A stretch of 64,000 nucleotides of DNA from Rhodospirillales bacterium (GTDB lineage Bacteria > Pseudomonadota > Alphaproteobacteria > Rhodospirillales > Casp-alpha2): NCBI GenBank assembly GCA_017644185.1, contig JAEPMA010000009.1, forward strand, positions 62,001 to 126,000. The letters run 5' to 3'. Made by a program: the position numbers and the translations under genes. The notes beneath the pieces are model-generated. The model did not search any database. It was not told the origin of the DNA and saw only the letters and a list, made by a program, of their open reading frames with translations. Positions within the stretch are counted from its first letter, which is position 1, and the number at the start of each line of letters is the position of its first letter. This document shows, in pieces, positions 1,670 to 19,444 of the stretch.

Positions 1670-1782
1670 TTTATATCGCTTTTACAGACACTTACCGCTG
1701 AAATGAAAATTTAGGCATTCCACTCGTCACGCGCGATGATCGGCCCGTCGTCCAGTGCCGTGATCATCGTGGAGTGCCTTGC

Positions 1783-3735: not shown

Positions 3736-3761
3736 CAGTTTCGATTAGGGGGTCATAGAAA

Positions 3762-5495
3762 ATGAACAACACCACAACTTCGACGCGTCGGCCGTCATGG
3801 CCCGCCTTCATCAACGCATTAACAGCGACACGCGGGCAGATTGGGCATCTGCTCTGCTTCAGTTTCGCGATCAACCTTCTGGTGCTCGCCGTCCCGGTGT
3901 TCATGATCCAGGTCTTCGACCGGGTCTTGGCCAGCCACAGCTTTGAAACCCTGACCGCGCTCGCCATCGGGGCGGTGGCGGCGTTACTCGTGATGTCGGC
4001 GCTGGACCTCGTGCGGGGCCGCATTCTCGCCCGCGCGGCGATGAAGCTCGAAGACAGCGTCGGAGAGGATTTGCTCGCCAAGCACCGCCAGGCGCGGTTG
4101 GGCGACGTCGCGCGCCTAAGACAATTCATCGCCGGTCCGGTGATGGTCACCCTTCTGGATGCCCCGTGGATACCGGTGTTCCTCAGTATCGTCTTTCTTC
4201 TCCACCCGACGCTCGGCTGGATCGCGACATTGGGGGCGCTGATGCTGGGGCTTTTGGCGCTCGCCAGCGAACGCTGGATGCGAGGGTTGATCATCGAAAC
4301 CCGCGACGCCGAGAAAAAGGCCGCCCGCCTCGCCGGCACCCTCGCCCACGACGACGGCTCGGCCGCCGTGTTCGGCCTGGATCAACATCTGGGACGGCGC
4401 TGGAAGAAACAGCAGTCCAAAACGGCGCGCGAACGCCTGCGCCTTGCCGACCGCACCTACACCGTCGGCGTGATGGCGCGCTTCATCCGCCTCGCCATGC
4501 AGATCACGTTGATGGCGTCGGCCGCCGCCCTCGTGATCTCGTCGCAGATCACGCCGGGCGCGATGGTCGCCGCCAGCGTCATCGCCGCACGCGCGCTTGG
4601 TCCGTTCGAGCGCGCGCAGGACGCGTGGCGCACACTGGTCGAGGTGCGCGCGATCCTCGCCCGCCTGCTCTCGACCGAGGTCAAGAAGCAGAACCCGATT
4701 TCCGGCTTCCCCGCGCTGGAAGTCCCGGCTTTGGAGGTCAAAGGGGTGAGCATGCTCAAGGACGACGTCCGCGAAGCCGTGTTCTCGAACGTCAGCTTCA
4801 ACGCCAGGGGCGGCGAGATGATCGGCATCACGGGGCCTAGCGGGTCGGGCAAGACACTGTTGGCAAGGCTACTGGTCGGCCTCGACACACCCGCGCACGG
4901 GCGTGTCCTTCTGGATCACGACGACATCCGCAACATCACCCTCGACCGGGCCAGAAACGACATCGCATATCTGTCTCAGACCCCGGCGCTTCTGCCCGGC
5001 ACGATTTCGGAGAATATCTCGCGCTTCTCGACACCCGATGCCCCCGAGATCTATGCCGCCGCCCGCTTCGTCGGTGCCGAGGATGCGATCCTCGACCTGC
5101 CCTACGGATATATGACCGAGGTCGGGCCGGGGATGCCGCCCCTTCCGCAAGGGTTGGCGCAGAAGATCCTCATGGCCAGGACGATCTTCGCCGACCCGCG
5201 CCTGATCGTGCTGGATGAGCCTTATACCTTCCTCGACAACGCCGGGATCGAAAGACTGATCGGCACCCTGACGCACTATCGTGACTCGGGTTCGATCATA
5301 ATCGCGATCTCACAGCGCCCAAGCGTCCTCGCCCAGTGCGACCGTGTGATCGTCTTCGAGAACGGCAAGGCGCGCGTCGTCGACCGCCTGAAACAGCAGC
5401 CTTTGCGGTTGATGGAGGGGGATGAAGAGAAAGCCATCGTGCCCCGCCGCGCCACCCGCCGCAAAGCCGCCGCCCGGTCGGCCAGCCAGGAGTAA
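3762..5495 (+). CDS. Type I secretion ABC transporter protein (PrtD/HlyB-like) with degenerate ATPase motifs
   Basis: The 577-residue protein has an N-terminal transmembrane domain (about 30-300) and a C-terminal nucleotide-binding domain. It should form the inner-membrane motor that exports the RTX protein encoded 26 bp upstream. Walker A is intact (GPSGSGKT, K364), the Q-loop reads YLSQTPALLPGT, and Walker B is LIVLDEP (D485, E486). The ABC signature, normally LSGGQ, reads LPQGL (461-465), and the H-loop histidine is Gln518 (AISQRPS). Both were read codon by codon. Such changes usually impair ATP hydrolysis in a homodimer. A heterodimer with a second ABC protein encoded elsewhere is therefore possible. 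The membrane domain and gene context still support type I secretion. Confidence 0.85.
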   Translation: MNNTTTSTRRPSWPAFINALTATRGQIGHLLCFSFAINLLVLAVPVFMIQVFDRVLASHSFETLTALAIGAVAALLVMSALDLVRGRILARAAMKLEDSVGEDLLAKHRQARLGDVARLRQFIAGPVMVTLLDAPWIPVFLSIVFLLHPTLGWIATLGALMLGLLALASERWMRGLIIETRDAEKKAARLAGTLAHDDGSAAVFGLDQHLGRRWKKQQSKTARERLRLADRTYTVGVMARFIRLAMQITLMASAAALVISSQITPGAMVAASVIAARALGPFERAQDAWRTLVEVRAILARLLSTEVKKQNPISGFPALEVPALEVKGVSMLKDDVREAVFSNVSFNARGGEMIGITGPSGSGKTLLARLLVGLDTPAHGRVLLDHDDIRNITLDRARNDIAYLSQTPALLPGTISENISRFSTPDAPEIYAAARFVGAEDAILDLPYGYMTEVGPGMPPLPQGLAQKILMARTIFADPRLIVLDEPYTFLDNAGIERLIGTLTHYRDSGSIIIAISQRPSVLAQCDRVIVFENGKARVVDRLKQQPLRLMEGDEEKAIVPRRATRRKAAARSASQE

Positions 5496-5500
5496 CCGCC

Positions 5501-6952
5501 ATGATGACACCGGAAGAACTGAAGCGCGCCCTTGAAAAGATGCGCCAGCAGTTAAATCAGAATGTCGACTGGCGCCAGGCCGTCAGCTCGACCGCCCTCG
5601 TCTCACGTGAAACGCTCGAGGACGACGCACCTCCTGAAATGATTGAAGAAGAAGAAACCGACGCGCCGTCGATCTTCGCCACCCGGCGCTGGCAGTTCGC
5701 CGGCTGGGCCATTGTCGTCGTCTTCATCTTCGGTGGCCTCGCATGGGCCGAACTGACGCGCATCGACGCCGCCGCCGTCGCCGTCGGCACGGTGGGGGTC
5801 GAAAGCAACCGCAAGACGGTGGCGCACCTGGAGGGCGGGATCGTAAAGGCGATCCTCGTCGTCGAGGGCGAGCGGGTGCGTCAGGGTCAGGCCCTGCTCC
5901 GCATGGACAACACCCGGGCACGCGCAACACTGGATCTTTTAAGGGGCCGGATGAACGCCTTGATGGCCAAAAAGGCGAGACTGGAGGCCGAGCAGCGAAA
6001 TCTGCCGACCATCGAATTCCCGCCCGCCCTTCTCGATCTCAACATCGACGAAAAGCTGATGGATATCATGGATGGCGAGATGCAGGTGCTGGAAACGCGC
6101 GCCCGCAATCTCGACCGCCAGGACCGCATCTTGCGCGAGCGCATCGCCAAGCAGAACGCCGAAATCCGGGGCCTGAAAGCGAAGCGGGAGGCGACCGTCA
6201 AACGTCATGAACTTCTGAAAGACGAACACGAGATGTTCTCGGGTCTTTTGAAAGACGGCCTCGTCGCCAAGAACCGGGTCCTCGCCGTCGAGCGGGCGCG
6301 GGTCGACGCCGAAGGCGACATCCACGACCTTTCCGCCAAAATCGCCAAGGCGGGCGACGAGATCGCCAAGCTGGAAATGGAGCGCGCGTTGTTGACCGAG
6401 CGCCACCAGACCGAAATCGCCGCCGAGCATCAGGAAACCCGTGAACGGATCGCCGAACTGCACGAGAAAATCCGCGCCGCGACGGACATCCTAACCCGCA
6501 CCGACGTGGTCGCCCCCGAAGACGGCGTCGTCGTCGCCCTCAGGCACCACACACCGGGTGGGGTGATCCAGGCCGGCGAACCGGTGCTGGAACTGGTGCC
6601 CGACAACGACAGATACGTGATCGACGTGAAGATCGACCCGAACGACATCGACGTGGTCTATCCGGGCCAGGTCGCGCGGGTCCGGCTTTCCGCGTTCAAC
6701 GCGCGAGCGACGCCGATGATCGAGGGTAAGGTTGTTCAGGTTTCCCCCGACCGCCTCACCGATCCGCAGACAGGCGCGGGGTTCTTTTCCGGCCGCGTGA
6801 TCCCGAACGAGAGCGCGTATCGGGCCGACCGGCCGATGCTGTCGCCGGGCATGCAGGCGGAGGTGTTTCTGGTAACGGAACGCAGGTCGGTGCTGGATTA
6901 CCTGCTCGATCCCCTCGTCCGCGCCGCGTCGCGTGCCGGTCGGGAGACGTAA
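5501..6952 (+). CDS. HlyD-family type I secretion periplasmic adaptor
   Basis: The 483-residue membrane-fusion protein begins five bases after the ABC gene, with AGGAG before tandem ATG codons, so the two are co-translated. It has a cytoplasmic N-terminus (1-65), one transmembrane helix (about 66-87, FAGWAIVVVFIFGGLAW), a biotinyl-lipoyl-like half motif (about 95-130), a long alpha-helical coiled coil (about 140-330) and a beta-barrel region with the family-typical GGVIQAGEPVLELVPDND stretch. It bridges the inner-membrane ABC protein and an outer-membrane TolC channel. No tolC gene lies nearby, so a shared TolC elsewhere is expected. Confidence 0.92.
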   Translation: MMTPEELKRALEKMRQQLNQNVDWRQAVSSTALVSRETLEDDAPPEMIEEEETDAPSIFATRRWQFAGWAIVVVFIFGGLAWAELTRIDAAAVAVGTVGVESNRKTVAHLEGGIVKAILVVEGERVRQGQALLRMDNTRARATLDLLRGRMNALMAKKARLEAEQRNLPTIEFPPALLDLNIDEKLMDIMDGEMQVLETRARNLDRQDRILRERIAKQNAEIRGLKAKREATVKRHELLKDEHEMFSGLLKDGLVAKNRVLAVERARVDAEGDIHDLSAKIAKAGDEIAKLEMERALLTERHQTEIAAEHQETRERIAELHEKIRAATDILTRTDVVAPEDGVVVALRHHTPGGVIQAGEPVLELVPDNDRYVIDVKIDPNDIDVVYPGQVARVRLSAFNARATPMIEGKVVQVSPDRLTDPQTGAGFFSGRVIPNESAYRADRPMLSPGMQAEVFLVTERRSVLDYLLDPLVRAASRAGRET

Positions 6953-8374: not shown

Positions 8375-8497
8375 GCTGTTGACCGATTCCGCTAGTCCTT
8401 AATTCAGCGGGGCCACAGCAGAAGGTTTTCGGGGCCGATGCCCCCAGGATTCAACGGGGCACAGTCCCCATCCAAAACGAGAATTAGGAGTTTTGAC

Positions 8498-9052
8498 ATG
8501 GCTAAAAAAGTTGCTCCGGTGCCCAAAGGCTATCGCACCGTGACCCCGTCCCTGGTCGTCCGTGGCGCCGATGCCGCGCTCGGCTTTTACAACGAAGTGT
8601 TCGGCGCCGAAGTGCTTTCGCGCACCTACGCCGAAGACGACGTCACCGTCCTGCACGCTGAAATGAAGATCGGCAACTCGATCATCGTCGTTTCCGACGA
8701 ACTGCCGGCGTTCGGCATCTGGTCGCCGCTCGCGTTCGGTGGTTCCGCCGTTGCCCAGCACCTCTATGTCGCCAACGTCGACGAGATCTGGGAACGCGCC
8801 GTCGAAAACGGTTGCACGGTGCTGGTGCCGCTGGCCGACACGCACTATGGTGAACGCTTCGCCAAGGTTGTCGATCCGTTCGGTCACGTCTGGTCGATGT
8901 CGAAACGTATTCCGGCTCCGAAAGCCGAAGACATCAAGGCCCAGACCCAGGCCGAAGGTTTCTCGATCTACGAGCCCCAGGCTCAACGTGAAGAACAGCA
9001 GTACCCGACCGCCGATGCCGCCCACGTTGAGGGCGAGATCGCAGCGGCCTAA
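8498..9052 (+). CDS. VOC-family (glyoxalase/PhnB-like) protein
   Basis: The start is the ATG at 8498, preceded by AGGAG at good spacing; the 20 upstream codons are rejected. The 184-residue product begins with the PhnB-type phrase GYRTVTPSLVVRGADAALGFY and contains VVDPFGHVWSMSKR, where His and the following region supply the usual metal-site face. VOC proteins act on small molecules through a metal centre, but no substrate can be read here. The last about 45 residues form a Glu/Gln-rich tail beyond the fold. A strong terminator follows, so it is probably monocistronic. Confidence 0.8.
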   Translation: MAKKVAPVPKGYRTVTPSLVVRGADAALGFYNEVFGAEVLSRTYAEDDVTVLHAEMKIGNSIIVVSDELPAFGIWSPLAFGGSAVAQHLYVANVDEIWERAVENGCTVLVPLADTHYGERFAKVVDPFGHVWSMSKRIPAPKAEDIKAQTQAEGFSIYEPQAQREEQQYPTADAAHVEGEIAAA

Positions 9053-9135: not shown

Positions 9136-10440
9136 ATGACTGATAACAAATCGCTCAACGACCGTCGTCAGGCCGCCACGCCCCGGGGCGTCGGTGTCGC
9201 CACCGGCATTTACGCCGACCGCGCCGAAAACGCGGAACTGTGGGACGTCGAAGGCAAGCGCTACGTGGACTTCGCGGGCGGCATTGCCGTTCTCAACACC
9301 GGTCACCGCAACCCGACCGTGATGGCCGCCGTCCAGAAGCAGCTCGAGCGGTTTACCCACACGGCGTATCAGGTCGTTCCCTACGAGCCCTATGTCGAAC
9401 TTGCCGAAAAGCTGAACGAACTGGCGCCGGGCGACACCCCCAAAAAGACCCTGTTCGTGACCACGGGTGCCGAGGCCGTCGAAAACGCGGTCAAGATCGC
9501 GCGCGCCCACACGGGCCGCCCGGGCGTTGTCGCGTTCTCCGGCGGGTTCCACGGCCGCACCATGATGACCATGGGACTGACCGGGAAAGTCGACCCCTAC
9601 AAACGCGGTTTCGGCCCGATGCCGGCCGGCATTCACCACCTGCCGTTCCCGATGCCGATGCACGGCGTCTCGGTCCAGGACTCGATCGACGCGCTGCACC
9701 GCCTGTTCAAGGCCGATCTCGAACCCGAACAGGTCGCAGCGATTATCATCGAGCCGGTCCAGGGCGAAGGCGGTTTCTACATCGCCCCCATCGAACTGAT
9801 TAAGGAACTGCGCCGCGTCTGCGACGAACATGGCATCTGCCTGATCGCCGACGAAGTGCAGACCGGTTTCGCCCGCACGGGCCGCATCTTCGCCTCCGAA
9901 CACTGGGGTGTCGAGCCGGACATGATCACCACCGCGAAATCGCTCGCGGGCGGTTTCCCGCTCGCCGGCGTTGTCGGCAAGGCGGAAATCATGGACGCCC
10001 CCGCGCCGGGTGGTCTGGGCGGCACTTATGGGGGTAGCCCGATCGGCTGCGCCGCCGCGCTGGGTGTCATCAAGGTGATCGAGGAAGAGCAGCTTCTGGG
10101 CCGCGCCAACATTATCGGCCAGCGCATCGTCGAGCGTGTCAATCGCATCAAAGACCGCACAGACGTGCAGCCGATCGGTGACGTCCGCGGGCTGGGCGCG
10201 ATGGTCGCGTTCGAGATGGTGACGGAAAAAGGCACCGATAAACCGGACGCCGACGCCACCAAGACGCTCTGCGCCAAAGCGTTGGAAAAAGGCCTGATCC
10301 TGCTGTCGTGCGGCGTTTACGCCAACACGATCCGGATCCTGGTGCCGCTGACCGCTTCGGATGCCGTTATCGACGAGGGTCTCGACATCATCGAGAACTG
10401 CCTCGCCGAGATGGGCACGACCGCGGTCGCCGCGGAATAA
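9136..10440 (+). CDS. gabT: 4-aminobutyrate-type class III aminotransferase
   Basis: The 434-residue PLP enzyme transfers the omega-amino group of GABA or a similar omega-amino acid to 2-oxoglutarate, giving the semialdehyde. The PLP lysine is K268 in TTAKSLAGGFPL. LIADEVQTGFARTG carries the cofactor Asp, and the N-terminal GVGVATGIYADRAENAELWDVEG is typical of GabT. Start: ATG at 9136 after GAAGGAA; a TTG nine bases upstream is possible. It lies just before the nitrilase and decarboxylase genes, so it may process an omega-amino product of that cluster rather than GABA itself. No succinate-semialdehyde dehydrogenase gene is adjacent. Confidence 0.85.
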   Translation: MTDNKSLNDRRQAATPRGVGVATGIYADRAENAELWDVEGKRYVDFAGGIAVLNTGHRNPTVMAAVQKQLERFTHTAYQVVPYEPYVELAEKLNELAPGDTPKKTLFVTTGAEAVENAVKIARAHTGRPGVVAFSGGFHGRTMMTMGLTGKVDPYKRGFGPMPAGIHHLPFPMPMHGVSVQDSIDALHRLFKADLEPEQVAAIIIEPVQGEGGFYIAPIELIKELRRVCDEHGICLIADEVQTGFARTGRIFASEHWGVEPDMITTAKSLAGGFPLAGVVGKAEIMDAPAPGGLGGTYGGSPIGCAAALGVIKVIEEEQLLGRANIIGQRIVERVNRIKDRTDVQPIGDVRGLGAMVAFEMVTEKGTDKPDADATKTLCAKALEKGLILLSCGVYANTIRILVPLTASDAVIDEGLDIIENCLAEMGTTAVAAE

Positions 10441-10446
10441 GGCTTC

Positions 10447-10479
10447 GCCCGGCGGGTGCGGAATACGCCGCCGCCGGGC
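10447..10479 (+). terminator. GC hairpin after gabT, no T-tract
   Basis: GCCCGGCGG (10447-10455) pairs with CCGCCGGGC (10471-10479), beginning six bases after the gabT stop. It lacks a U-run, so it is only a possible terminator or an mRNA-stabilising hairpin before the nitrilase-family gene. Confidence 0.4.
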
Positions 10480-10552
10480 AGACCTTGACCGGAACACGCT
10501 TGCAAGCGACCATTGTAACGTATTGCGAAATAAACATAGAGGTCCCTATTAG

Positions 10553-11509
10553 ATGACCCCCTTCGCGATTGCCGGTGTGCAGATGCAAGTTTCGGCCAGC
10601 CATGAGAACGTGACCGCGATGTCGCATCGCGTCGATCACGTGATGGCGCGCTTTCCCTGGGTTCAGATGATCGTGTTCAGCGAGCTGGCGCCGTATGGCC
10701 CGCTGACCGGCAACCATCCCGAAAGCACAGAAGGGGCGCTTGAGGTCTTCCGCGAAGCCGCGCGCCGTCACAACGTCTGGCTTCTTCCGGGTTCTATGTT
10801 CGAACGCACCGAATACGGCCTTCAGAACGTCGCCTACGTCATCAATCCGCAGGGTGAGACCGTCGGCCGCTACGCCAAGATGTTCCCGTTCCAGCCGTAC
10901 GAAGCCGGTGTCGAGGGCGGGACAGAGTTCTGCGTCTTCGACGTGCCGGAAATCGGCCGCTTCGGGGTGTCGATCTGCTACGACATCTGGTTCCCGGAAA
11001 CCACGCGCACGCTCGTCTCGATGGGCGCCGAGGTGCTGCTGCACCCGGTCTTAACGGGGACCATCGACCGTGACATCGAACTTTCGATCGCGCGCTCGAC
11101 CGCGGCGATGTTCCAGACCTATGTCTTCGACATCAACGGCCTGGGCCCGGGCGGGACCGGACGCTCCTGCGTCGTCGATCCGTCGGGCACCATCCTCTAT
11201 CAGGCCGCCGGCCAGGAGGAAGTGATCCCGGTCGAGGTCGATTTCGACCTGGTGCGCCGCCAGCGCGCCGTGGGCCTTAGGGGCCTGGGGCAGACTTTGA
11301 AGAGTTTCCGCGACCGAAACGCCTATTTCGGGGTTTATGACCCGACCGTCGCCGATACCAGCTATCTTTACAGCCTGGGCGCGCTGGAAATGCCGCATCA
11401 GGGCTCGCAGGAGGGACTGAACGTCCCCCGCCCCGCCGACGTGAACGGCCACCGGGGCTATAACAACATTACGGTGCTCGACACCCATAAAAGCGCGAAA
11501 GACGCATAA
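10553..11509 (+). CDS. Carbon-nitrogen hydrolase (nitrilase superfamily amidase)
   Basis: The 318-residue enzyme has the Glu-Lys-Cys triad of the superfamily: E44 in VFSELAPYG, K109 in RYAKMFPF and C142 in SICYDIWFP. Members hydrolyse amides, N-carbamoyl groups or nitriles in the cytoplasm. No signal peptide is present. The closest functional guess from context is an amidase acting on an amide made by the ATP-grasp ligase or on an N-carbamoyl amine such as N-carbamoylputrescine, but the sequence alone does not decide. It is 26 bases upstream of the decarboxylase gene and probably shares its transcript. Confidence 0.85.
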   Translation: MTPFAIAGVQMQVSASHENVTAMSHRVDHVMARFPWVQMIVFSELAPYGPLTGNHPESTEGALEVFREAARRHNVWLLPGSMFERTEYGLQNVAYVINPQGETVGRYAKMFPFQPYEAGVEGGTEFCVFDVPEIGRFGVSICYDIWFPETTRTLVSMGAEVLLHPVLTGTIDRDIELSIARSTAAMFQTYVFDINGLGPGGTGRSCVVDPSGTILYQAAGQEEVIPVEVDFDLVRRQRAVGLRGLGQTLKSFRDRNAYFGVYDPTVADTSYLYSLGALEMPHQGSQEGLNVPRPADVNGHRGYNNITVLDTHKSAKDA

Positions 11510-11535
11510 AACAATGACGAACAGGGAGTTCAAAA

Positions 11536-14277
11536 ATGCCGGACGAGGGAGCGAAGACTAAGGGCGTATCGCTAGGCCGCTATTACAATGCCACCCAGTT
11601 CCGCGTCGATACGTGGAACAAGCTCAAGAATATCGTCCTTCGGCTTGCCGAAGGGCGGGAACGCCCCGACGACTATGCGCAGGCCAAGGCGCTGCTGGAC
11701 GAACTTGCGCCGTTCGAAACGTATTGGGCGTTTCCGGGCCACCACGATTTCAGGCAGCTCTACCATCTTCTGGACACCAAGGACGTCCGCACGCTGAGCC
11801 GCGCGGTGTCACGCATCGTCGGCGCGATGATGAGCAGCAGCTATCGCCGCAAGCACGTCAACCTCGGCCTTCACGGCGAGGATGAATATCTCGAGGAAGA
11901 GGAACTTGAGACGCTTGAGGAGCGGAGCCGCCGCCGCCCCTATTTCGAAGTGCTGTTCGTCGACGACCTGTCGCACGTGCAGCAGCATCAACAGGAAGAG
12001 GGTCTGCACGGCATGCGCCGCGAGGAAGACCCCTTCACTTACGAACCCGTGTTCGTGCCCAGCTTCGAGGACGCGGTCATCGCGGTCCTGTTCAACCACA
12101 ACATCCAGTCGGTGGTGATCCGCTTCGGCTTCCGTTTCAAATCGATCAACGATCTGCCGGTTTTGAACCGATATCTGAAGATGGCGCACATCGACAGCGT
12201 CGATGACCTGGAGCCGCAGGACTACGGGATCGTCCTGGCCGAGGTGATCGGCCGCATCCGCCCGGAACTGGACCTCTATCTGGTGACCGATCAGAGCGTC
12301 GAGGACGTGGCCGGCCGCGTCGGCGATTCATGCCGCCGCATCTTTTATAATCAGGAAGACTTCCTGGAACTGCACATGAACATCCTGAGGGGTGTCGACA
12401 GCCGCTTCCAGACCCCCTTCTTCACCGCGCTCAGGAATTACGCCAAGCAGCCGACCGGCGTGTTCCACGCGCTCCCCATCTCGCGCGGCAAGTCGATCAC
12501 GAAATCCAACTGGATCAGGGACATGGGCGAGTTCTATGGGATGAACATCTTCCTCGCGGAAACGTCGGCGACGTCGGGCGGGCTGGACTCCCTTCTTGAG
12601 CCGATCGGGCCTTTGAAAAAGGCGCAGGAGCTGACATCCCGGGCGTTCGGCTCGCGCAAGACCTTCTTCGCCACCAACGGCACGTCGACCTGTAACAAGA
12701 TCGTCGTGCAGGCCGTCGTCCGGCCGGGCGACATCGTTCTCGTCGACCGTGACTGCCACAAGTCGCACCATTACGGGATGGTGCTGGGCGGCGCGCACGT
12801 GGTCTATCTCGATAGTTATCCACTTAGTGAGTATTCGATGTACGGCGCCGTGCCGCTGCGCGAGATCAAGAAAGAACTGCTGGAACTGAAGGCCGCCGGC
12901 AAGCTGGACAAAGTCCGCATGCTTCTGTTGACGAACTGCACCTTCGACGGGCTGGTCTACAATGTCGAACGGGTGATGGAAGAGTGTTTGGCGATCAAAC
13001 CGGATCTCGTCTTCCTGTGGGATGAGGCGTGGTTCGGCTTCGCCCGGTTCGGGCCGACGTATCGTCAACGCACGGCGATGTATCAGGCCGGCAACCTCCG
13101 CGAAAAGTTCAAGGACCCGGATTATCGCGAGGCCTACGAAGCGCATAAGATCGAGCGCGAGGAAGCCGGCGACGATATCGAGAAACTTCTGGATATGCGC
13201 CTGATGCCCGATCCGGATACGTCCAGGGTCCGCGTGTACGCGACCCAGTCGACCCACAAGACCCTGACGGCCCTCAGGCAGGGCTCGATGATCCACGTCC
13301 ACGACCAGGACTTCGCATCGAAGACGGAGGAAGCCTTCCACGAAGCGTTCATGACCCACACCTCGACCTCGCCCAACTACCAGATTTTGGCGTCGCTCGA
13401 CGTCGGGCGCCGGCAGGTCGAACTCGAAGGCTTCGAGATGGTGCAGAAACAGGTCGAGATGGCCATGGTGCTGCGCCAGAAGGTCCGCACCCATCCGCTG
13501 CTGTCGAAGTTCTTCAAGATTCTCACCGTCGGCGACATGATCCCGGCGGAATACCGGCAATCGGGAATCGAGAGCTACTACGAGGCCGACAAAGGCTGGA
13601 ACGATATCTGGGAAGCATGGGCGGGTGATGAGTTCGCGCTCGATGCGACCCGCATCACGCTGCTGGTCGGTGAGACCGGCATGGACGGCGATACGTTCAA
13701 AAACGCCGAGTTGATGGATAAATACGGCATCCAGATCAACAAGACGTCGCGCAACACGGTCCTGTTCATGACCAACATCGGCACGACGCGTAGTTCGATC
13801 GCGTATCTGATCGAGGTGCTCGTCAAGATCGCCCACGAGATGGAAGAGAAGCTCGAGGACATGAATGCGCCGGAAAAGAAAGCGCACGAGAAAAAGGTCA
13901 ACGGCCTCCTGAACGAGTTGCCGCCATTACCCGACTTCTCGCGCTTCCACGACGCCTTCCGACCCGACCCCAAGGGGCACACCCGCGAGGGTGTGATGCG
14001 GGATGCGTACTTCCTTTCTTATGATGAGGACACCTGCGAGTACCTGACCCTCGAAGAGGGGATCGAAGAGGCGATGGCCGCGGGACGCGAGGTCGTCAGT
14101 GCGACCTTCATCATCCCCTACCCGCCGGGCTTCCCGATCCTGGTGCCGGGCCAGGTGGTCTCGAAAGAGATCATCGGGTTCTTCAAGGCGCTCGATGTGA
14201 AGGAAATCCACGGCTACCGCCCGGACCTGGGCTTACGCGTATTTACCGAGGACGCTTTGAAAGCGCGCCTCAAATAG
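11536..14277 (+). CDS. Large PLP-dependent Orn/Lys/Arg-type decarboxylase
   Basis: The 913-residue fold-type I PLP protein starts at ATG with GGGAG eight bases upstream. An N-terminal receiver-like domain (about 1-290) precedes the PLP domain: substrate/cofactor loop ATNGTSTCNK, aromatic-stacking His in DRDCHKSHHYG, cofactor Asp496 in DEAWFGFARFG and Schiff-base Lys575 in STHKTL. The C-terminal domain carries IIPYPPGFPILVPGQ, diagnostic of the Orn/Lys/Arg decarboxylase family. Such enzymes release CO2 from basic amino acids to give putrescine, cadaverine or agmatine. At about 910 residues it is longer than the approximately 710-755 residues of the E. coli inducible enzymes. The substrate is not determined. 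It lies between the amidase and ATP-grasp genes. Confidence 0.85.
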   Translation: MPDEGAKTKGVSLGRYYNATQFRVDTWNKLKNIVLRLAEGRERPDDYAQAKALLDELAPFETYWAFPGHHDFRQLYHLLDTKDVRTLSRAVSRIVGAMMSSSYRRKHVNLGLHGEDEYLEEEELETLEERSRRRPYFEVLFVDDLSHVQQHQQEEGLHGMRREEDPFTYEPVFVPSFEDAVIAVLFNHNIQSVVIRFGFRFKSINDLPVLNRYLKMAHIDSVDDLEPQDYGIVLAEVIGRIRPELDLYLVTDQSVEDVAGRVGDSCRRIFYNQEDFLELHMNILRGVDSRFQTPFFTALRNYAKQPTGVFHALPISRGKSITKSNWIRDMGEFYGMNIFLAETSATSGGLDSLLEPIGPLKKAQELTSRAFGSRKTFFATNGTSTCNKIVVQAVVRPGDIVLVDRDCHKSHHYGMVLGGAHVVYLDSYPLSEYSMYGAVPLREIKKELLELKAAGKLDKVRMLLLTNCTFDGLVYNVERVMEECLAIKPDLVFLWDEAWFGFARFGPTYRQRTAMYQAGNLREKFKDPDYREAYEAHKIEREEAGDDIEKLLDMRLMPDPDTSRVRVYATQSTHKTLTALRQGSMIHVHDQDFASKTEEAFHEAFMTHTSTSPNYQILASLDVGRRQVELEGFEMVQKQVEMAMVLRQKVRTHPLLSKFFKILTVGDMIPAEYRQSGIESYYEADKGWNDIWEAWAGDEFALDATRITLLVGETGMDGDTFKNAELMDKYGIQINKTSRNTVLFMTNIGTTRSSIAYLIEVLVKIAHEMEEKLEDMNAPEKKAHEKKVNGLLNELPPLPDFSRFHDAFRPDPKGHTREGVMRDAYFLSYDEDTCEYLTLEEGIEEAMAAGREVVSATFIIPYPPGFPILVPGQVVSKEIIGFFKALDVKEIHGYRPDLGLRVFTEDALKARLK

Positions 14278-14284
14278 TGCCATT

Positions 14285-14310
14285 GGCGGCGGCTCGACCC
14301 GCCGCCTTTT
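14285..14310 (+). terminator. Intercistronic rho-independent terminator or attenuator
   Basis: GGCGGCGG (14285-14292), loop CTCGAC, CCGCCGCC (14299-14306), then TTTT. It sits seven bases after the decarboxylase stop and 25 bases before the ATP-grasp start. It should reduce read-through, so the downstream ligase either has its own start or is made at a lower level. Confidence 0.75.
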
Positions 14311-14335
14311 AAAATTAAACAGGGAGACGATTATC

Positions 14336-15913
14336 ATGGCGACTAAGAAGAAAGCCGCAACCAAGAAGAAAGCGCCCGCAAAGAAGGCCGCTGCCAAGAA
14401 AGCCCCCGCAAAAAAGACTGCCGCCAAGAAGGCGCCCGCGAAAAAGGCTGCTGCACGCAAGCCGCGCCCCAAGAAGCTGAAGAACATTTCCGAGATCCGG
14501 CGGTTCTTCCACCGGAACGAAGATCCGATCTTCTTCATCAGCGCGACCAACTTCAATCTGTTGGGGATTGATGAATGGTGCCGTAACTTCAAATACATTT
14601 GCTACATCGACTGCTACGACGGGCGTCATCCGAACGTCTTCGTCCCGACCGAAGCGCCCCATCCCGAATTCGAGTCGATCGAGGACATCAACGCCTACCT
14701 GCTCGAGCACAAGGAAGTCATCGACTATGTGAAGTCGAAGGGCGGCAAGCCGAAAGCCGTGTTCCTGATGTTCGACGAGCGGGTCGAGAAAGTCTGCAAG
14801 GAGCTGGGCCTCGAGGTCTGGTTCCCGAAAGCGGCGCTCCGCGAAAAGATCGACCACAAGATCGAAACCGTGCGCATCGGCAACAAGGCGGGCGTGCCGT
14901 CGGTGCCGAACACGCTTGGTGTGATCAACAGCTACGACGATCTCAAGAAGCTCGCGAAGCCATTGGGTAACGATCTGGTCCTTCAGTCCGCGTTCGGTGA
15001 CAGCGGTCACACCACGTTCTTCATCAAGAGCGAAAAAGACTACCGCCGCCACGAGCACGACATCGTCGGCCAGGGCGAGATCAAGGTGATGAAGCGGATC
15101 AACTGCCGCGGTTCCGCGATCGAAGCCTGCGCAACATCAAAGGGCACCATCGTCGGCCCGCTGATGACCGAGCTTGTCGGCTTCAAGGAATTGACCCCAT
15201 ATCGCGGCGGCTGGTGCGGCAACGAAATCTTCCCCGAAGCGTTCGATCCGAAGATCCGCAAGAAAGCCCGCGAGTACACCTTCCAGTTCGGTAACCAACT
15301 GGTGAAAGAGGGTTATCGCGGCTATTTCGAGCTCGACTTCCTGATCGATCAGGACGACGGCAACATCTATCTGGGTGAGTGCAACCCACGCGTCACGGGT
15401 GCCAGCTCGATGACCAACCACGCGGCCTTCGCGCATGCCGACGCGCCGCTGTTCCTGTTCCACCTGCTGGAATTCTCGGGCGTGCCGTTCGACATCGACG
15501 TCAACGAGTTGAACAACCGCTGGGCCGATGCCGACAATATCGACAGCTGGTGCCAGATGGTGATTAAGCACACAGAAGACAATGTCGATATCATCACGGA
15601 AGCCCCCGAGTCGGGAATCTGGAGCCTGAACAAGGACGGCAGCGTCACCTACAACCGCTTCGACTATCACCGCCGCGCGGTCGAAAGCGAAGCCGAGGCG
15701 TTCTTCCTGCGCATCTCCGACAAGGGCGATTACCGCTACGAAGGCGCCGATCTGGGGATTCTGATTACCCGCGGGCGGGCGATGGATAACAAGTTCAAGC
15801 TGACCAAACGCGCCAAGCAGTGGATCGAGGGCATCAAGTCCCAGTACAAGGCGAAACCGCTGCCGAAAGCGCAACCGGTCGAGCTTGCGGACCCGGCGTT
15901 CAAGATTCTTTGA
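14336..15913 (+). CDS. ATP-grasp ligase with histone H1-like lysine-rich N-terminal tail
   Basis: Residues 1-50 contain 20 Lys and 2 Arg with Ala, Pro and Thr. KK pairs recur every five residues (16-17, 21-22, 26-27, 31-32, 36-37), as in histone H1-like bacterial proteins. From about residue 55 an ATP-grasp protein follows, with KSKGGKPKAVF, the SAFGDSGHTTF loop and the metal-binding strand GYFELDFLIDQDDGNIYLGECNPRVTGAS. Proteins of this type are often labelled biotin carboxylase but have no biotin partner here. A carboxylate-amine ligase is more likely. The start is clear (GGGAGA eight bases before ATG), so the tail is translated. Its neighbours, a diamine-producing decarboxylase and an amide-cleaving Ntn enzyme, support amide chemistry. 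Confidence 0.8.
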   Translation: MATKKKAATKKKAPAKKAAAKKAPAKKTAAKKAPAKKAAARKPRPKKLKNISEIRRFFHRNEDPIFFISATNFNLLGIDEWCRNFKYICYIDCYDGRHPNVFVPTEAPHPEFESIEDINAYLLEHKEVIDYVKSKGGKPKAVFLMFDERVEKVCKELGLEVWFPKAALREKIDHKIETVRIGNKAGVPSVPNTLGVINSYDDLKKLAKPLGNDLVLQSAFGDSGHTTFFIKSEKDYRRHEHDIVGQGEIKVMKRINCRGSAIEACATSKGTIVGPLMTELVGFKELTPYRGGWCGNEIFPEAFDPKIRKKAREYTFQFGNQLVKEGYRGYFELDFLIDQDDGNIYLGECNPRVTGASSMTNHAAFAHADAPLFLFHLLEFSGVPFDIDVNELNNRWADADNIDSWCQMVIKHTEDNVDIITEAPESGIWSLNKDGSVTYNRFDYHRRAVESEAEAFFLRISDKGDYRYEGADLGILITRGRAMDNKFKLTKRAKQWIEGIKSQYKAKPLPKAQPVELADPAFKIL

Positions 15914-15952
15914 GGAGCATGGACTCTGGACGCTCTCGCGCGTAATTAGATC

Positions 15953-16025
15953 GTCATTCCCGCGAAAGCGGGAACCCGGAAATGACGTGCCGGTGCCCCT
16001 GGGTCCCCGCCTTCGCGGGGATGAC
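15953..16025. repeat. Paired inverted REP-like units
   Basis: GTCATTCCCGC-GAAA-GCGGGAA and, about 30 bases on, GGTCCCCGCC-TTC-GCGGGGATGAC face each other. Together they fill most of the gap between the ATP-grasp and C45 genes. The two could fold as one long hairpin or two short ones. Confidence 0.75.
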
Positions 16026-16053
16026 AACACTGCCCGGCAACAAGGAACCGTTC

Positions 16054-17043
16054 ATGGATCTGGTCTTTGAGACCATAAGCGAGAAGCACGCGGGCGAGAA
16101 ATGGCAGTCGCGTTTCGACATGCTCTGGCCCGCTTACCAGCGTTGGTTTCTCTCCGACGGCATCGAGGCCCGCCAGACCTACCTGGCGGGCTATCGGGCC
16201 TTCAAGCAGTACATGCCAGAGATGGTGCCGACCTATGAAAAGCTCTGCGAGCTTGCAGGCGGCGACGACCTGTCGGCCCGGTTCCTGAGTTTCTACTGTC
16301 CGCCCGCATATCTATCGGGGTGTTCCCAGGCCGTCTGGCCCGGGGCCGAGCCGATGCTGGTCCGCAACTACGATTACGCCCCCGCCCTTTGCGACGGTTT
16401 GATCCTGCATTCGCGCTGGCACGACAGGTGGGTGTTGGGGATGGCGGACGGGTTGTTCGGCCTGGTTGATGGGATGAACGACCGGGGCCTTGCGGTATCG
16501 CTCACGTTCGGGGGCCGAACCATCGTCGGCGACGGGTTCGGGGTGCCGATCATCCTCCGCTACATCATGGAATTCTGCGACACGGTCAGTGACGCGACCG
16601 AAGCGCTGACCCGTATCCCATGCCACATGACCTACAACGTCACCGTGGTCGACAAACAGGGCCGGCACGCGACCGTCTATCTGTCGCCGGACCGGAAGGC
16701 CATCGTCACGGATCAAAGGGTCGCGACCAATCACCAGGAGCGTGTCGAATGGCACCGCCACGCCCGCGCCACAGCGACGGTCGAGCGCGAGCGCTTTCTG
16801 TTACAAAGATTGACCCTCCACGACGAACCCGCCGACCGCTTCATCGGTGCATTCCAGAAACCGCCCCTCTATTCGACCGCGTTCGGACGCGGCTTTGGCA
16901 CGGTCTACACCGCTGTCTACTGGCCAAAGAAAGGTCTCGCCGAATACCGTTGGCCGGGCGTTCATTGGACGCAGCGCCTCAAATCCCCGGTCGAGGGCCA
17001 GCGCCATATCCGTTTCCCGATGTCCGATCAGGCATTGGCGTAA
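16054..17043 (+). CDS. C45-family autoproteolytic acyltransferase/hydrolase (Ntn fold)
   Basis: The start is the ATG at 16054, after AAGGAA; the frame reads further upstream only through a repeat. The 329-residue protein carries the family site YLSGC-S at residues 87-91, with C90 as the presumed N-terminal nucleophile after self-cleavage, and the downstream VRNYDY and GMNDRGLAVSLTFGG motifs of the acyl-CoA:6-APA acyltransferase (AAT) relatives. Such enzymes make or break amide bonds on small acyl-amines. The residue before Cys is Gly, as needed for autocatalysis. No signal peptide was seen. It follows the ATP-grasp gene and may act on its product. Confidence 0.8.
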   Translation: MDLVFETISEKHAGEKWQSRFDMLWPAYQRWFLSDGIEARQTYLAGYRAFKQYMPEMVPTYEKLCELAGGDDLSARFLSFYCPPAYLSGCSQAVWPGAEPMLVRNYDYAPALCDGLILHSRWHDRWVLGMADGLFGLVDGMNDRGLAVSLTFGGRTIVGDGFGVPIILRYIMEFCDTVSDATEALTRIPCHMTYNVTVVDKQGRHATVYLSPDRKAIVTDQRVATNHQERVEWHRHARATATVERERFLLQRLTLHDEPADRFIGAFQKPPLYSTAFGRGFGTVYTAVYWPKKGLAEYRWPGVHWTQRLKSPVEGQRHIRFPMSDQALA

Positions 17044-17139: not shown

Positions 17140-17793
17140 TTGAAAAAAGTCTACAAAAAGATCTTCAAGGATTTCACGGCCAACGTTGTGCCGGTCGACT
17201 GCGGCGAGAAGTGCCGGCATCTGAACGAGGGCACACCTGTCTGCTGCGATATCGAGAACGCCGTCCCGATCATGGACAAGAGCGAATACAAACTGCTCAG
17301 GTCCCGCTCCAAACTCTGGCGCAAGTACCGGCCCCCCAACGAACATGGCGAGGAACTCGTTGAATCGCTGCACGAAGATTGCGTTGCGTGTGAGTGCAAG
17401 GGCGCCATGTTCTGCGAACGCGACAACCGCTCGCTATCGTGCCGCGCCTTTCCGTTCTTTCCGTATATTACGAAGAACGGCGACTTCATCGGGATGGCGA
17501 CCTACTGGACGTTCGAGGACCGGTGCTGGGTGATCAGCAACATGAAAAAAGTGACGCCCGAGTTCGTCACCGAATTCCATGGCGTCTATGAGCACCTGTT
17601 CGAGAACAAGCCCGACGAGTTCGAGGTCTATAAGGATTATTCGGCGACCATGCGGCGCGTGTTCTCGCGCTGGAAACGACCGATTTACATCGTCGACCGC
17701 GACCGCGACTTCCACGCCATCCTGCCCAAGGGTGCGGGGATGGAACCGGTCAAAAAACGCGACCTGCCGAAGTTCGGTCCTTACGCGGAATAG
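17140..17793 (+). CDS. YkgJ-type cysteine-cluster protein
   Basis: The 217-residue protein is read from a TTG start; no ATG is in frame nearby and the ribosome site is weak. Cys residues cluster early (C21, C25, C35, C36) and again near residues 85-105 (CVACEC, FC, SC), a pattern like the zinc/iron-chelating YkgJ family. The C-terminal half is mixed and ends basic. The role is unknown; YkgJ-like proteins have been proposed as metal-binding or redox-associated. It is 96 bases after the C45 gene and may or may not belong to that cluster. Confidence 0.65.
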   Translation: MKKVYKKIFKDFTANVVPVDCGEKCRHLNEGTPVCCDIENAVPIMDKSEYKLLRSRSKLWRKYRPPNEHGEELVESLHEDCVACECKGAMFCERDNRSLSCRAFPFFPYITKNGDFIGMATYWTFEDRCWVISNMKKVTPEFVTEFHGVYEHLFENKPDEFEVYKDYSATMRRVFSRWKRPIYIVDRDRDFHAILPKGAGMEPVKKRDLPKFGPYAE

Positions 17794-17899: not shown

Positions 17900-19288
17900 T
17901 CAGGAAACGTCCGCGTAAACCGTATCCAGCGATTTCTTCACCGCAGACACGATCTCGTCGACCTCGCCTTCGGTAAGACAGAACGGCGGCGCGAAACCGA
18001 GGATATCGCCGTGCGGCATGGCCCGCGCGATGATCCCGTTTTCGAGCGCGGCAGCCGACATCTTGGCACCAACCTTAAGGCCCGGATCGAAAAAGGTTTT
18101 CGACTTCTTGTCCTGAACGAACTCGATGGCGGCCAGAAGGCCCTCACCACGGACTTCGCCGACCATCGGATGATCCTGGAAATTATCCCTGAGCGCCTTC
18201 TGGAAATAGGCGCCGGTCTTTCTCACGTTCCCGATCAGGTCGTCTTTTTCGATCACGTTCAGATTGGCGACGCCGGCAGCCGCACCGACCGGATGCGCGG
18301 AATACGTCCAGCCATGCCCGATGGGCCCGAGATCTTCCGAGCCCTGATCCAGAATACCGCAGACCTTCTCGCTCAGGATCGAACCCGACAACGGGGCGTA
18401 GGCGCTGGTCAGGCCCTTGGCGATGGTGATGATGTCGGGCTTCATTTTATAGTGCTCGGACCCGAACCATGAACCCAATCTGCCGAAGCCGGTCACGACC
18501 TCGTCGGCGATCAGCATGACGTCGTATTTATCGAGCACTTTCTGAATAGCCTGCCAGTAACCTTCGGGAGGCGGGATCAGCCCGCCCGTCCCCATGAACG
18601 GCTCGCCGATGAACGCGGCGACGGTGTCGGGACCTTCGTCCTGGATGAGTTGTTCGAGTTGTAACGCGCAGTAATCGGAGAACTCCAGTTCACTCATGCC
18701 GTCCTGGGCGTACTTCCAATAATGCGGGCATTGGGTGTGCAACACCCGGTCCAGCGGCAGATCGAACGCCATGTGGAACAGCGGCAGGCCGGTCAGACTG
18801 CCGGTCATCAACCCCGACCCGTGATAGCCCCTGTCGCGGGAAATGATCTTCTTCTTCTCGGGTCTGCCCAGAATGTTGTTCATGTACCAGACCAGCTTGA
18901 TGTTGGTCTCGTTCGCATCCGAACCGGACAAGCCGAAATAAACACGGCTCATGTTCTCAGGCGCGAGATCGACGACCTTGGCGGCCAGCCGGATCGAGTT
19001 CTCGGTGCCGTGGCCGACATACGCGTGATAGAACGCGAGCTTATGGGCTTGTTCTGAGATCGCATCGGCAACCTCGGTCCGGCCATAACCGATGTTCACG
19101 CAGTAAAGCCCGGCGAACGCGTCCAGGCTCTTCTTACCCGTGCGGTCGGTGATGTAGACCCCCTCGCCCGTTTCGATGACGCGCACCGGCGTCTTACCGG
19201 TGGCATGCCCCTTCACATCCGATGACGCGTGTAGAAAATGCGCCCGGTCAAGCGCTTCCAGTTCATCCATGTTGCGAAGTTCGTTCAT
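17900..19288 (-). CDS. Class III omega-aminotransferase
   Basis: The start is the ATG at 19288, nine bases after AGAGGA; 19 upstream codons lack a site. The 462-residue PLP enzyme has the cofactor Asp in LIADEVVTGFGRLG and the Schiff-base Lys in TIAKGLTSAYAPLSG. It resembles omega-amino acid or putrescine/taurine:pyruvate aminotransferases, which move a terminal amino group to pyruvate. The substrate cannot be fixed from sequence. Given the amine cluster upstream and the sulfonate genes at 36-40 kb, a diamine, beta-alanine or taurine are candidates. It is divergent from the SDR gene. Confidence 0.8.
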   Translation of the reverse strand: MNELRNMDELEALDRAHFLHASSDVKGHATGKTPVRVIETGEGVYITDRTGKKSLDAFAGLYCVNIGYGRTEVADAISEQAHKLAFYHAYVGHGTENSIRLAAKVVDLAPENMSRVYFGLSGSDANETNIKLVWYMNNILGRPEKKKIISRDRGYHGSGLMTGSLTGLPLFHMAFDLPLDRVLHTQCPHYWKYAQDGMSELEFSDYCALQLEQLIQDEGPDTVAAFIGEPFMGTGGLIPPPEGYWQAIQKVLDKYDVMLIADEVVTGFGRLGSWFGSEHYKMKPDIITIAKGLTSAYAPLSGSILSEKVCGILDQGSEDLGPIGHGWTYSAHPVGAAAGVANLNVIEKDDLIGNVRKTGAYFQKALRDNFQDHPMVGEVRGEGLLAAIEFVQDKKSKTFFDPGLKVGAKMSAAALENGIIARAMPHGDILGFAPPFCLTEGEVDEIVSAVKKSLDTVYADVS

Positions 19289-19444
19289 CTGAGAGTCCTC
19301 TGTAAAAAAAGCTAACGAGGCTTGATAGGGGGAATCACATCCCACTTACAACCCCCCTGCACGGGATATTTATCCGCCATCCCATCTATGGTTTATTGGA
19401 CTCAACGACACCCCACCTATGGCATATCAACGGAGAAAAAAATT

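What the first reader, a model, noticed from the sequence alone, without database searches (positions are those of the whole stretch)
9136..17043. Unrecognised amine/amide pathway: aminotransferase, amidase, decarboxylase, ATP-grasp ligase, C45 Ntn enzyme
Five consecutive same-strand genes combine diamine formation (Orn/Lys/Arg decarboxylase), ATP-dependent amide ligation (ATP-grasp), amide cleavage or acyl transfer (C45 enzyme and nitrilase-family amidase) and omega-amino acid deamination (GabT-like). The logic recalls the gamma-glutamyl-putrescine route, but with entirely different enzyme families. It could be a new polyamine or basic-amino-acid conversion pathway, or the synthesis of an amide product.
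Basis: inference. Interest (0 to 1): 0.78.

Follow-up and report, generated by a model that had tools for sequence, protein, structure and literature searches.

The report
Conserved GABA-linked amide enzyme cassette
A four-enzyme gene cassette of unknown function, kept together in many bacteria, probably makes the small amino acid GABA and joins it into (or frees it from) an amide; its decarboxylase may have switched from basic to acidic amino acids.

Summary
The five genes are there. They are the local form of a conserved cassette: nitrilase-type amidase (Nit), 913-aa Orn/Lys/Arg-fold decarboxylase (OKR), ATP-grasp enzyme (PRK06524) and C45 Ntn enzyme. In 110 loci chosen through the ATP-grasp gene, C45 is in 109; 79 of 85 loci with all four keep the order Nit-OKR-Grasp-C45 on one strand. 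Of 289 genomes of the class, 7 hold both Grasp and OKR (8 each). GabT is optional.

Context points to glutamate/GABA more than diamines. All 32 linked TAXI binding proteins keep Y45, S75, Q93 and E125 of the glutamate binder VcGluP. In a genome without OKR, and on two related plasmids, arginine-to-GABA genes accompany Grasp and C45. All 72 cassette OKR rows have Asn where CadA/SpeF have a substrate-binding Glu. But 37 of 80 long loci have neither TRAP nor GabT.

Best reading: OKR makes GABA, the ATP-grasp enzyme puts it into an amide, C45/Nit cleave or remodel it; the partner is unknown.

The parts
8498..9052 (+). VOC/glyoxalase-family protein, optional upstream member (ORF 8438-9052; start inferred at ATG 8498)
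   Evidence: PF00903; upstream of GabT or Nit in the close clade; 14 of 110 loci, 12 at >=45% identity
9136..10440 (+). GabT-like class III aminotransferase (GABA:2-oxoglutarate type), optional member
   Evidence: TIGR00700 606 bits, cut-off 507; 36 of 110 loci at >=50% identity
10553..11509 (+). Nit: nitrilase-superfamily amidase with E44-K109-E117-C142, member in most loci
   Evidence: PF00795; the four residues fall in columns >=97% conserved over 89 rows (their catalytic role is family knowledge); 88 of 110 loci
11536..14277 (+). OKR: 913-aa PLP decarboxylase of the Rv2531c subfamily; proposed acidic amino acid (glutamate) alpha-decarboxylase
   Evidence: PF01276; K575, H408, D496, W499 in 72 of 72 rows, N735 and R739 in 72 of 72; 103 of 110 loci
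14336..15913 (+). Grasp: ATP-grasp enzyme (PRK06524), with a lysine/alanine-rich N-terminal tail
   Evidence: NF005096 770 bits, cut-off 684; 322 stretches encoding a relative, best 80 kept
16054..17043 (+). C45: autoproteolytic Ntn acyltransferase/hydrolase, presumed nucleophile C114 of the ORF numbering
   Evidence: NF040521 181 bits, cut-off 85; C114, D131, N250 in columns >=97% conserved over 107 rows; 109 of 110 loci
15952..16026 (.). palindromic intergenic repeat between Grasp and C45 (extent approximate)
   Evidence: sequence read directly
17900..19345 (-). class III aminotransferase PRK07482, possible accessory: homologues (57-59%) follow OKR in two ectoine-type loci
   Evidence: NF005684 802 bits, cut-off 687; L131, L132; only 3 of 110 loci at >=45% identity

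Best explanation
The cassette is a GABA-centred amide module. Step 1 (inferred): the OKR-fold enzyme alpha-decarboxylates L-glutamate, or a close acidic/neutral relative, to GABA; in about a third of the loci seen the glutamate would come in through a TAXI-TRAP transporter. Step 2 (inferred): the ATP-grasp enzyme uses ATP to form an amide with GABA as one partner; the other partner is unknown. Step 3 (inferred): the C45 Ntn enzyme cleaves that amide or moves its acyl group, and Nit hydrolyses a small amide. Step 4 (family-level assignment): GabT, where present, turns GABA into succinate semialdehyde. In at least one genome GABA would instead be made from arginine through 2-ketoarginine and 4-guanidinobutyrate. 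Shown: gene content, conservation, order, conserved catalytic-type residues and module exchange. No chemistry is shown.
For: (1) Same-strand order Nit-OKR-Grasp-C45 within 10 kb in 79 of 85 loci holding all four; Grasp and C45 both present in 109 of 110, less than 300 bp apart in 104. (2) Co-occurrence in whole genomes: Grasp in 8, OKR in 8, both in 7 of 289 genomes of the class, the window's own included (Fisher p 2e-12, kinship not corrected). (3) The L044 TAXI protein is identical to VcGluP (8S4J) at 172 of 295 residues; Y45, S75, Q93, E125 are conserved in 32 of 32 linked TAXI proteins. VcGluP binds L-glutamate with a Kd of 0.065 uM (PMC11574862, passages), and a TAXI transporter serves Na+-dependent glutamate growth in C. 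sphaeroides (PMC12632250, section 10; sequences not compared). TRAP genes are upstream on the same strand in 32 of 33 loci that have them. (4) GabT at >=50% in 36 of 110 loci; PuuR-like regulator in 25 of 110. (5) No OKR match in genome G745, where Nit-Grasp-C45 adjoin permease, SpeB, AruI, ALDH, DadA and racemase genes; the same set on two related plasmids, AruI of L114 over its cut-off (737 vs 500). (6) CadA E526/SpeF E532 -> N735 and CadA P530/AdiA D575 -> R739 in 72 of 72 cassette rows. (7) Two OKR paralogues with the same N and R lie beside aspT antiporters. (8) No GadB over cut-off in 22 of 23 Grasp-bearing genomes examined.
Against: I know of no enzyme activity for PRK06524, this C45 group or this OKR subfamily. 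AdiA also lacks the E526 residue (T571 there), so its loss does not exclude arginine. R739 is Ile in Rv2531c (alignment) and His in L150. Agmatinase-family genes lie near the cassette in L146 and L154, which do have OKR. Two loci sit inside ectoine catabolic clusters, which lead to aspartate, not GABA. TAXI genes occur in only 32 of 110 loci, and 37 of the 80 loci of 19 kb or more have neither a TRAP permease nor GabT. Y45 and Q93 are common among TAXI proteins in general (78% and 54%, PMC11574862). One of the two plasmids with the arginine gene set also carries OKR elsewhere. The GadB base rate in these lineages was not measured. The ligase's partner is unknown.
Confidence: 0.45

Rival explanations
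1. Basic amino acid route: OKR is an arginine decarboxylase making agmatine, and the ATP-grasp/C45 pair acylates and deacylates agmatine or a guanidino product on its way to GABA.
For: PF01276 family membership; [quoted passage not shown] agmatinase-family genes over the TIGR01230 cut-off in L114, L143, L146, L154 and 5 of 110 loci in all; both OKR and the AruI gene set could start from arginine; arginase and ornithine cyclodeaminase genes within 10 kb of an OKR in L140.
Against: N735/R739 in 72 of 72 rows, where CadA and SpeF have Glu at the first and AdiA has Asp at the second position; glutamate-type TAXI transporters; OKR paralogues beside aspT antiporters; an agmatinase-family gene in only 5 of 110 loci.
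Confidence: 0.25
2. Ligase first: the ATP-grasp enzyme joins the gamma-carboxylate of glutamate to an amine, OKR decarboxylates that gamma-glutamyl amide (or glutamine itself) to a GABA amide, and Nit/C45 release GABA. Similar in logic to glutamyl activation and decarboxylation in butirosin biosynthesis (recalled, not looked up).
For: Distant cassettes in L136, L137 and L150 show OKR-Grasp-C45 without Nit, so decarboxylation and ligation belong together; Asn at position 735 could suit an amide; VcGluP, the TAXI relative, also binds glutamine (PMC11574862).
Against: G745 keeps Nit, Grasp and C45 without an OKR match, which this order of steps does not explain.
Confidence: 0.15
3. Ectoine/aspartate branch: OKR decarboxylates 2,4-diaminobutyrate or aspartate (to 1,3-diaminopropane or beta-alanine), and the cassette diverts ectoine breakdown.
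For: Nit-Grasp-C45-OKR sits between an Lrp regulator and SSADH/PRK07482 aminotransferase genes, with doeA, doeB, eutB, eutC homologues around, in L131 and L132; paralogues beside aspT; ectB near an OKR in L142, with a transposase gene between.
Against: Only 2 of 110 loci have doeA; the window's genome has no DoeA over the cut-off (487 vs 613 bits); GabT and PuuR-like neighbours fit GABA better.
Confidence: 0.1

Closest known systems
Gamma-glutamyl-putrescine (Puu) pathway of E. coli (outline recalled)
   Same: ATP-driven amide formation, amide hydrolysis, GABA transaminase and, in some loci, a PuuR-like regulator
   Different: None of the five proteins is placed in a PuuA, PuuB, PuuC or PuuD family; ATP-grasp and Ntn C45 instead; own decarboxylase; GabT and regulator optional
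Rv2531c, probable amino acid decarboxylase (PDB 9N0N/9N0O/9N0P)
   Same: Same subfamily over the whole length (E about 1e-260); shares Asn at the CadA E526 position
   Different: R739 is Ile there; its gene context was not examined here; activity unknown (PMC12910592)
CadA, AdiA, SpeF (group III basic amino acid decarboxylases)
   Same: PLP lysine, His, Asp and Trp of the active site conserved
   Different: Long N-terminal region; E526/E532 -> N735; D575 (AdiA) -> R739
Biotin carboxylase / pyruvate carboxylase ATP-grasp domain
   Same: Fold (Foldseek TM about 0.5 on the query length) and the E-N-R motif
   Different: About 15% identity; the segment after the motif is TGASS; no biotin carrier domain matched in the five cassette proteins; the annotation 'biotin carboxylase' is probably wrong
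Arginine racemase/dehydrogenase and AruI route to 4-guanidinobutyrate
   Same: Present beside Grasp-C45 in L114, L141, L143
   Different: OKR is not in these loci; the route's genes are not in the window's cassette

Membership tests
Basic amino acid (Orn/Lys/Arg) decarboxylases | PLP-binding Lys, His, Asp, Trp | tested here: met
   K575, H408, D496, W499 in 72 of 72 rows
Basic amino acid (Orn/Lys/Arg) decarboxylases | Acidic residue for the distal amine (CadA E526, SpeF E532) | tested here: not met
   N735 in 72 of 72; the role of E526 is postulated in PMC5607190 (passage); AdiA has Thr there, so this bears on Lys/Orn more than on Arg
Basic amino acid (Orn/Lys/Arg) decarboxylases | Activity on Arg, Orn or Lys | not testable with these tools
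   no assay
Biotin carboxylase | NCBIfam acetyl-CoA carboxylase biotin carboxylase model over its cut-off | tested here: not met
   accC TIGR00514 27 bits against 626; only PRK06524 over its cut-off
Biotin carboxylase | Residues after the ENR motif (QVEH, recalled) | tested here: not met
   T354-G355-A356-S357 follow R352-V353; T354, G355 and S357 invariant in 40 rows; the alignment to 7kct ends at T354 against Q
GABA transaminase (GabT) | TIGR00700 over its cut-off | tested here: met
   606 bits against 507
C45 autoproteolytic acyltransferase/hydrolase | NF040521 over its cut-off and conserved nucleophile Cys | tested here: met
   181 bits against 85; C114 in a column >=97% conserved over 107 rows; autoproteolysis itself not tested
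N-carbamoylputrescine amidase | TIGR03381 over its cut-off | tested here: not met
   69.5 bits against 410
Gamma-glutamyl-putrescine pathway | PuuA, PuuB, PuuC, PuuD families among the five genes | tested here: not met
   no such family over a cut-off in the rows shown for the five proteins (for GabT only 25 of 70 NCBIfam rows are shown); the rest of the window was not searched for them
Gamma-glutamyl-putrescine pathway | PuuR regulator | tested here: inconclusive
   linked regulators occur in 25 of 110 loci; the one scored gives 145 bits against a cut-off of 211; the window was not searched for one

The most novel reading that the evidence does not exclude
OKR is (to my knowledge) the first group III-fold PLP decarboxylase specific for an acidic amino acid, which would also suggest a substrate class for the orphan Rv2531c subfamily. 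It feeds a new ATP-driven GABA-conjugation cycle: an uncharacterised ATP-grasp ligase family makes a GABA amide, possibly a compatible solute or nitrogen store, which a C45 Ntn enzyme remodels or cleaves. Bacteria can swap glutamate for arginine as the GABA source.
Probability: 0.3. Interest if true: 0.85.

Novelty: new variant of a known kind. Interest (0 to 1): 0.6.

Why it matters
322 stretches of genome records encode a relative of this ATP-grasp gene; in plasmid records it is labelled biotin carboxylase in 16 of 32 hits. My paper searches (listings only, open-licence library) showed no paper that I recognised as describing the unit. If the reading holds, it gives a second protein fold for glutamate-to-GABA conversion, a testable substrate for an orphan decarboxylase subfamily with solved structures, a new amide ligase family, and a new GABA-amide metabolite. 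It also warns against reading polyamine formation from the Orn/Lys/Arg decarboxylase domain alone.

Tried and rejected
Rejected: real biotin carboxylase. Rejected: chance clustering. Not carried further: the ectoine link as general explanation (2 of 110 loci). The Foldseek search of the ATP-grasp model (pLDDT 74) returned mainly biotin carboxylase relatives, with PurK-type and other ATP-grasp enzymes among the 50 rows shown, at TM about 0.5; it did not identify a substrate. The OKR model was poor (pLDDT 66, pTM 0.54) and was not used. Promoter and terminator scan: 3 and 10 sites against 3.0 and 10.2 in shuffles, so no operon limits could be read. Pfam gave no shared function for genes after the distant cassettes. 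The pairing of Grasp with Nit as a glutamine-dependent amidotransferase was considered and not tested.

Limits of the counts: the 110 loci were all fetched through Grasp, 80 of them the best of 322, and some are the same genome reached twice (L128/L046, L133/L102, L155/L068, L156/L103 have identical Grasp). They are not independent. Only 80 loci are 19 kb or longer, so absence near contig ends is uncertain. The 72 OKR rows also include near relatives; 10 further rows (three E. coli enzymes, paralogues, distant forms and others) were in the alignment but not in that count.
Full report
What is there. The window lies in a 4.16 Mb genome of 32 contigs. The C45 ORF probably starts at ATG 16054, because its first 24 codons overlap a palindromic repeat. 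A VOC-family gene (ORF 8438-9052) precedes and a cysteine-rich protein (17140-17793, no Pfam or NCBIfam match at E 0.001) follows on the same strand. Residues of catalytic type are conserved: OKR K575, H408, D496, W499; Nit E44, K109, E117, C142 and C45 C114 (the roles of these residues are recalled from family knowledge).

Conservation. A scan of genome contigs with the ATP-grasp protein gave 322 stretches that encode a relative, of which the best 80 were kept. With plasmid and genome-search loci the set is 110, all chosen through Grasp. C45 is present in 109, OKR in 103, Nit in 88. Of 85 loci with all four, 79 have the order Nit-OKR-Grasp-C45 on one strand within 10 kb; three have Nit-Grasp-C45-OKR, three others differ. 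In whole genomes, 289 of the class (the window's own included) hold Grasp in 8 (E <= 1e-60) and the OKR subfamily in 8 (E <= 1e-40), both in 7. G977 has only a partial Grasp; G965 has only OKR (54% identical). Fisher p is 2e-12, not corrected for kinship. In Paracoccus marinaquae (L094) OKR is not beside the other genes in the 21 kb held but is present elsewhere in that genome, which argues for a functional tie beyond linkage.

Variable neighbours. In the clade of the window the cassette is mostly preceded by VOC and GabT genes. In Rhodobacterales and others it is often preceded by a TAXI binding protein, a TRAP permease and a small Usp protein (TAXI in 32, permease in 33 of 110), upstream on the same strand in 32 of 33. 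GabT (>=50% identity) is in 36 of 110 loci, together with TRAP in 16. A PuuR-like XRE-cupin regulator is in 25 of 110 (145 bits against a cut-off of 211 for the one tested). Against a simple glutamate/GABA story, 37 of the 80 loci of 19 kb or more have neither TRAP nor GabT.

What is transported. The L044 TAXI protein is identical to VcGluP (8S4J) at 172 of 295 residues. Across 32 linked TAXI proteins Y45, S75, Q93 and E125 are all kept; M201 is Thr in 30 and Gln in 2, D157 is Gln in 31. In VcGluP, Y45A and Q93A cut glutamate affinity 213- and 990-fold; it also binds glutamine and pyroglutamate more weakly (PMC11574862, passages). The equivalent of M201 is Thr187 in the Thermus glutamate/glutamine protein (same passages). 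A C. sphaeroides TAXI transporter is needed for sodium-dependent growth on glutamate (PMC12632250, section 10); I did not compare its sequence. So a glutamate-type ligand is likely for the linked transporter.

What the decarboxylase may use. Aligned with E. coli CadA, AdiA and SpeF, all 72 cassette rows have Asn at CadA E526 (SpeF E532) and Arg at CadA P530 (AdiA D575). E526 has been postulated as the substrate-binding residue of lysine decarboxylase (PMC5607190, passage). This speaks against lysine and ornithine. For arginine it is weaker, since AdiA has Thr at the first position. Two paralogues beside aspT antiporters have the same Asn and Arg, which recalls decarboxylase-antiporter pairs for acidic amino acids (family knowledge). 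Rv2531c shares the Asn but has Ile instead of Arg. Canonical GadB is missing over the cut-off in 22 of 23 Grasp-bearing genomes, the window's included; the base rate is unknown.

Exchange of the GABA source. In G745 (completeness estimate 100%) there is no OKR match at E <= 1e-30, and Nit-Grasp-C45 adjoin permease, agmatinase-family, AruI, ALDH, DadA and racemase genes. The same set surrounds Grasp-C45 on two related plasmids, with a different nitrilase-family gene. One of these plasmids has OKR elsewhere; for both, only the plasmid was searched. AruI of L114 passes its model's cut-off (737 against 500) and four agmatinase-family proteins pass TIGR01230. Read together, these genes would take arginine to 4-guanidinobutyrate and then GABA. 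The metabolite most easily shared between this variant and a glutamate decarboxylase is GABA. If instead both start from arginine, the first rival holds. L146 and L154, with both OKR and an agmatinase-family gene, leave that open.

The ligase. PRK06524 is named biotin carboxylase, but the other biotin carboxylase models score far under their cut-offs. The AlphaFold model (pLDDT 74) matches that fold at TM about 0.5 and about 15% identity, and the residues after the shared E-N-R motif differ. An amide-forming ATP-grasp ligase is the more likely role (inference). Its partner substrate is the main unknown.

Ectoine clusters. In L131 and L132 the four genes lie inside clusters with doeA, doeB, Lrp, SSADH, PRK07482, eutB and eutC genes, with an aminotransferase 57-59% identical to the one at 17900-19345 of the window. 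This is the clearest result that the GABA reading does not explain; it may mean a link to osmolyte metabolism. The window's genome has no DoeA over the cut-off.

Verdict. A real, conserved metabolic cassette for which my paper searches (listings, open-licence library only) showed no account that I recognised. GABA-centred amide chemistry is the best-supported reading at about 0.45; the basic-amino-acid reading keeps about 0.25.

Noticed in passing
window 14336-14476; also L033, L036: The ATP-grasp protein carries a lysine/alanine-rich, histone H1-like N-terminal tail of about 45 residues, also in L033 and longer in L036; many other relatives start near residue 40 (ORFs of 483-507 aa). H1-type models match weakly, under their cut-offs.
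   Followed up: partly
window 15952-16026; similar peptide traces in ORFs at 6933 and 7720: Palindromic intergenic repeat that ORF callers extend into coding frames.
   Followed up: no
L138 and L139 (plasmids of Ensifer and Rhodobacter): A paralogue of the same decarboxylase subfamily (about 48% identical) lies beside two aspT-type antiporter genes in each: a possible acid-stress or energy-conserving decarboxylase-antiporter unit.
   Followed up: partly
L115, L116 (Rhizobium leguminosarum plasmids): OKR-Grasp-C45 occurs within 12 kb of nifA and electron-transfer flavoprotein genes (L115) or near a RiPP cluster (L116); C45 looks truncated next to transposase genes in L115.
   Followed up: no
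window 1774-6952: Large protein with repeated GGxGxD-type motifs followed by an ABC transporter and an HlyD-like protein: looks like a type I secretion substrate with its exporter (from the translated sequence; no family search).
   Followed up: no
window 17140-17793: Cysteine-rich 217-aa protein with no Pfam or NCBIfam match, found in only 1 of 110 loci, the close relative L033.
   Followed up: partly
L113, L088, L085, L129: An FMN-binding glutamate synthase-family gene near the cassette in 4 of 110 loci.
   Followed up: no
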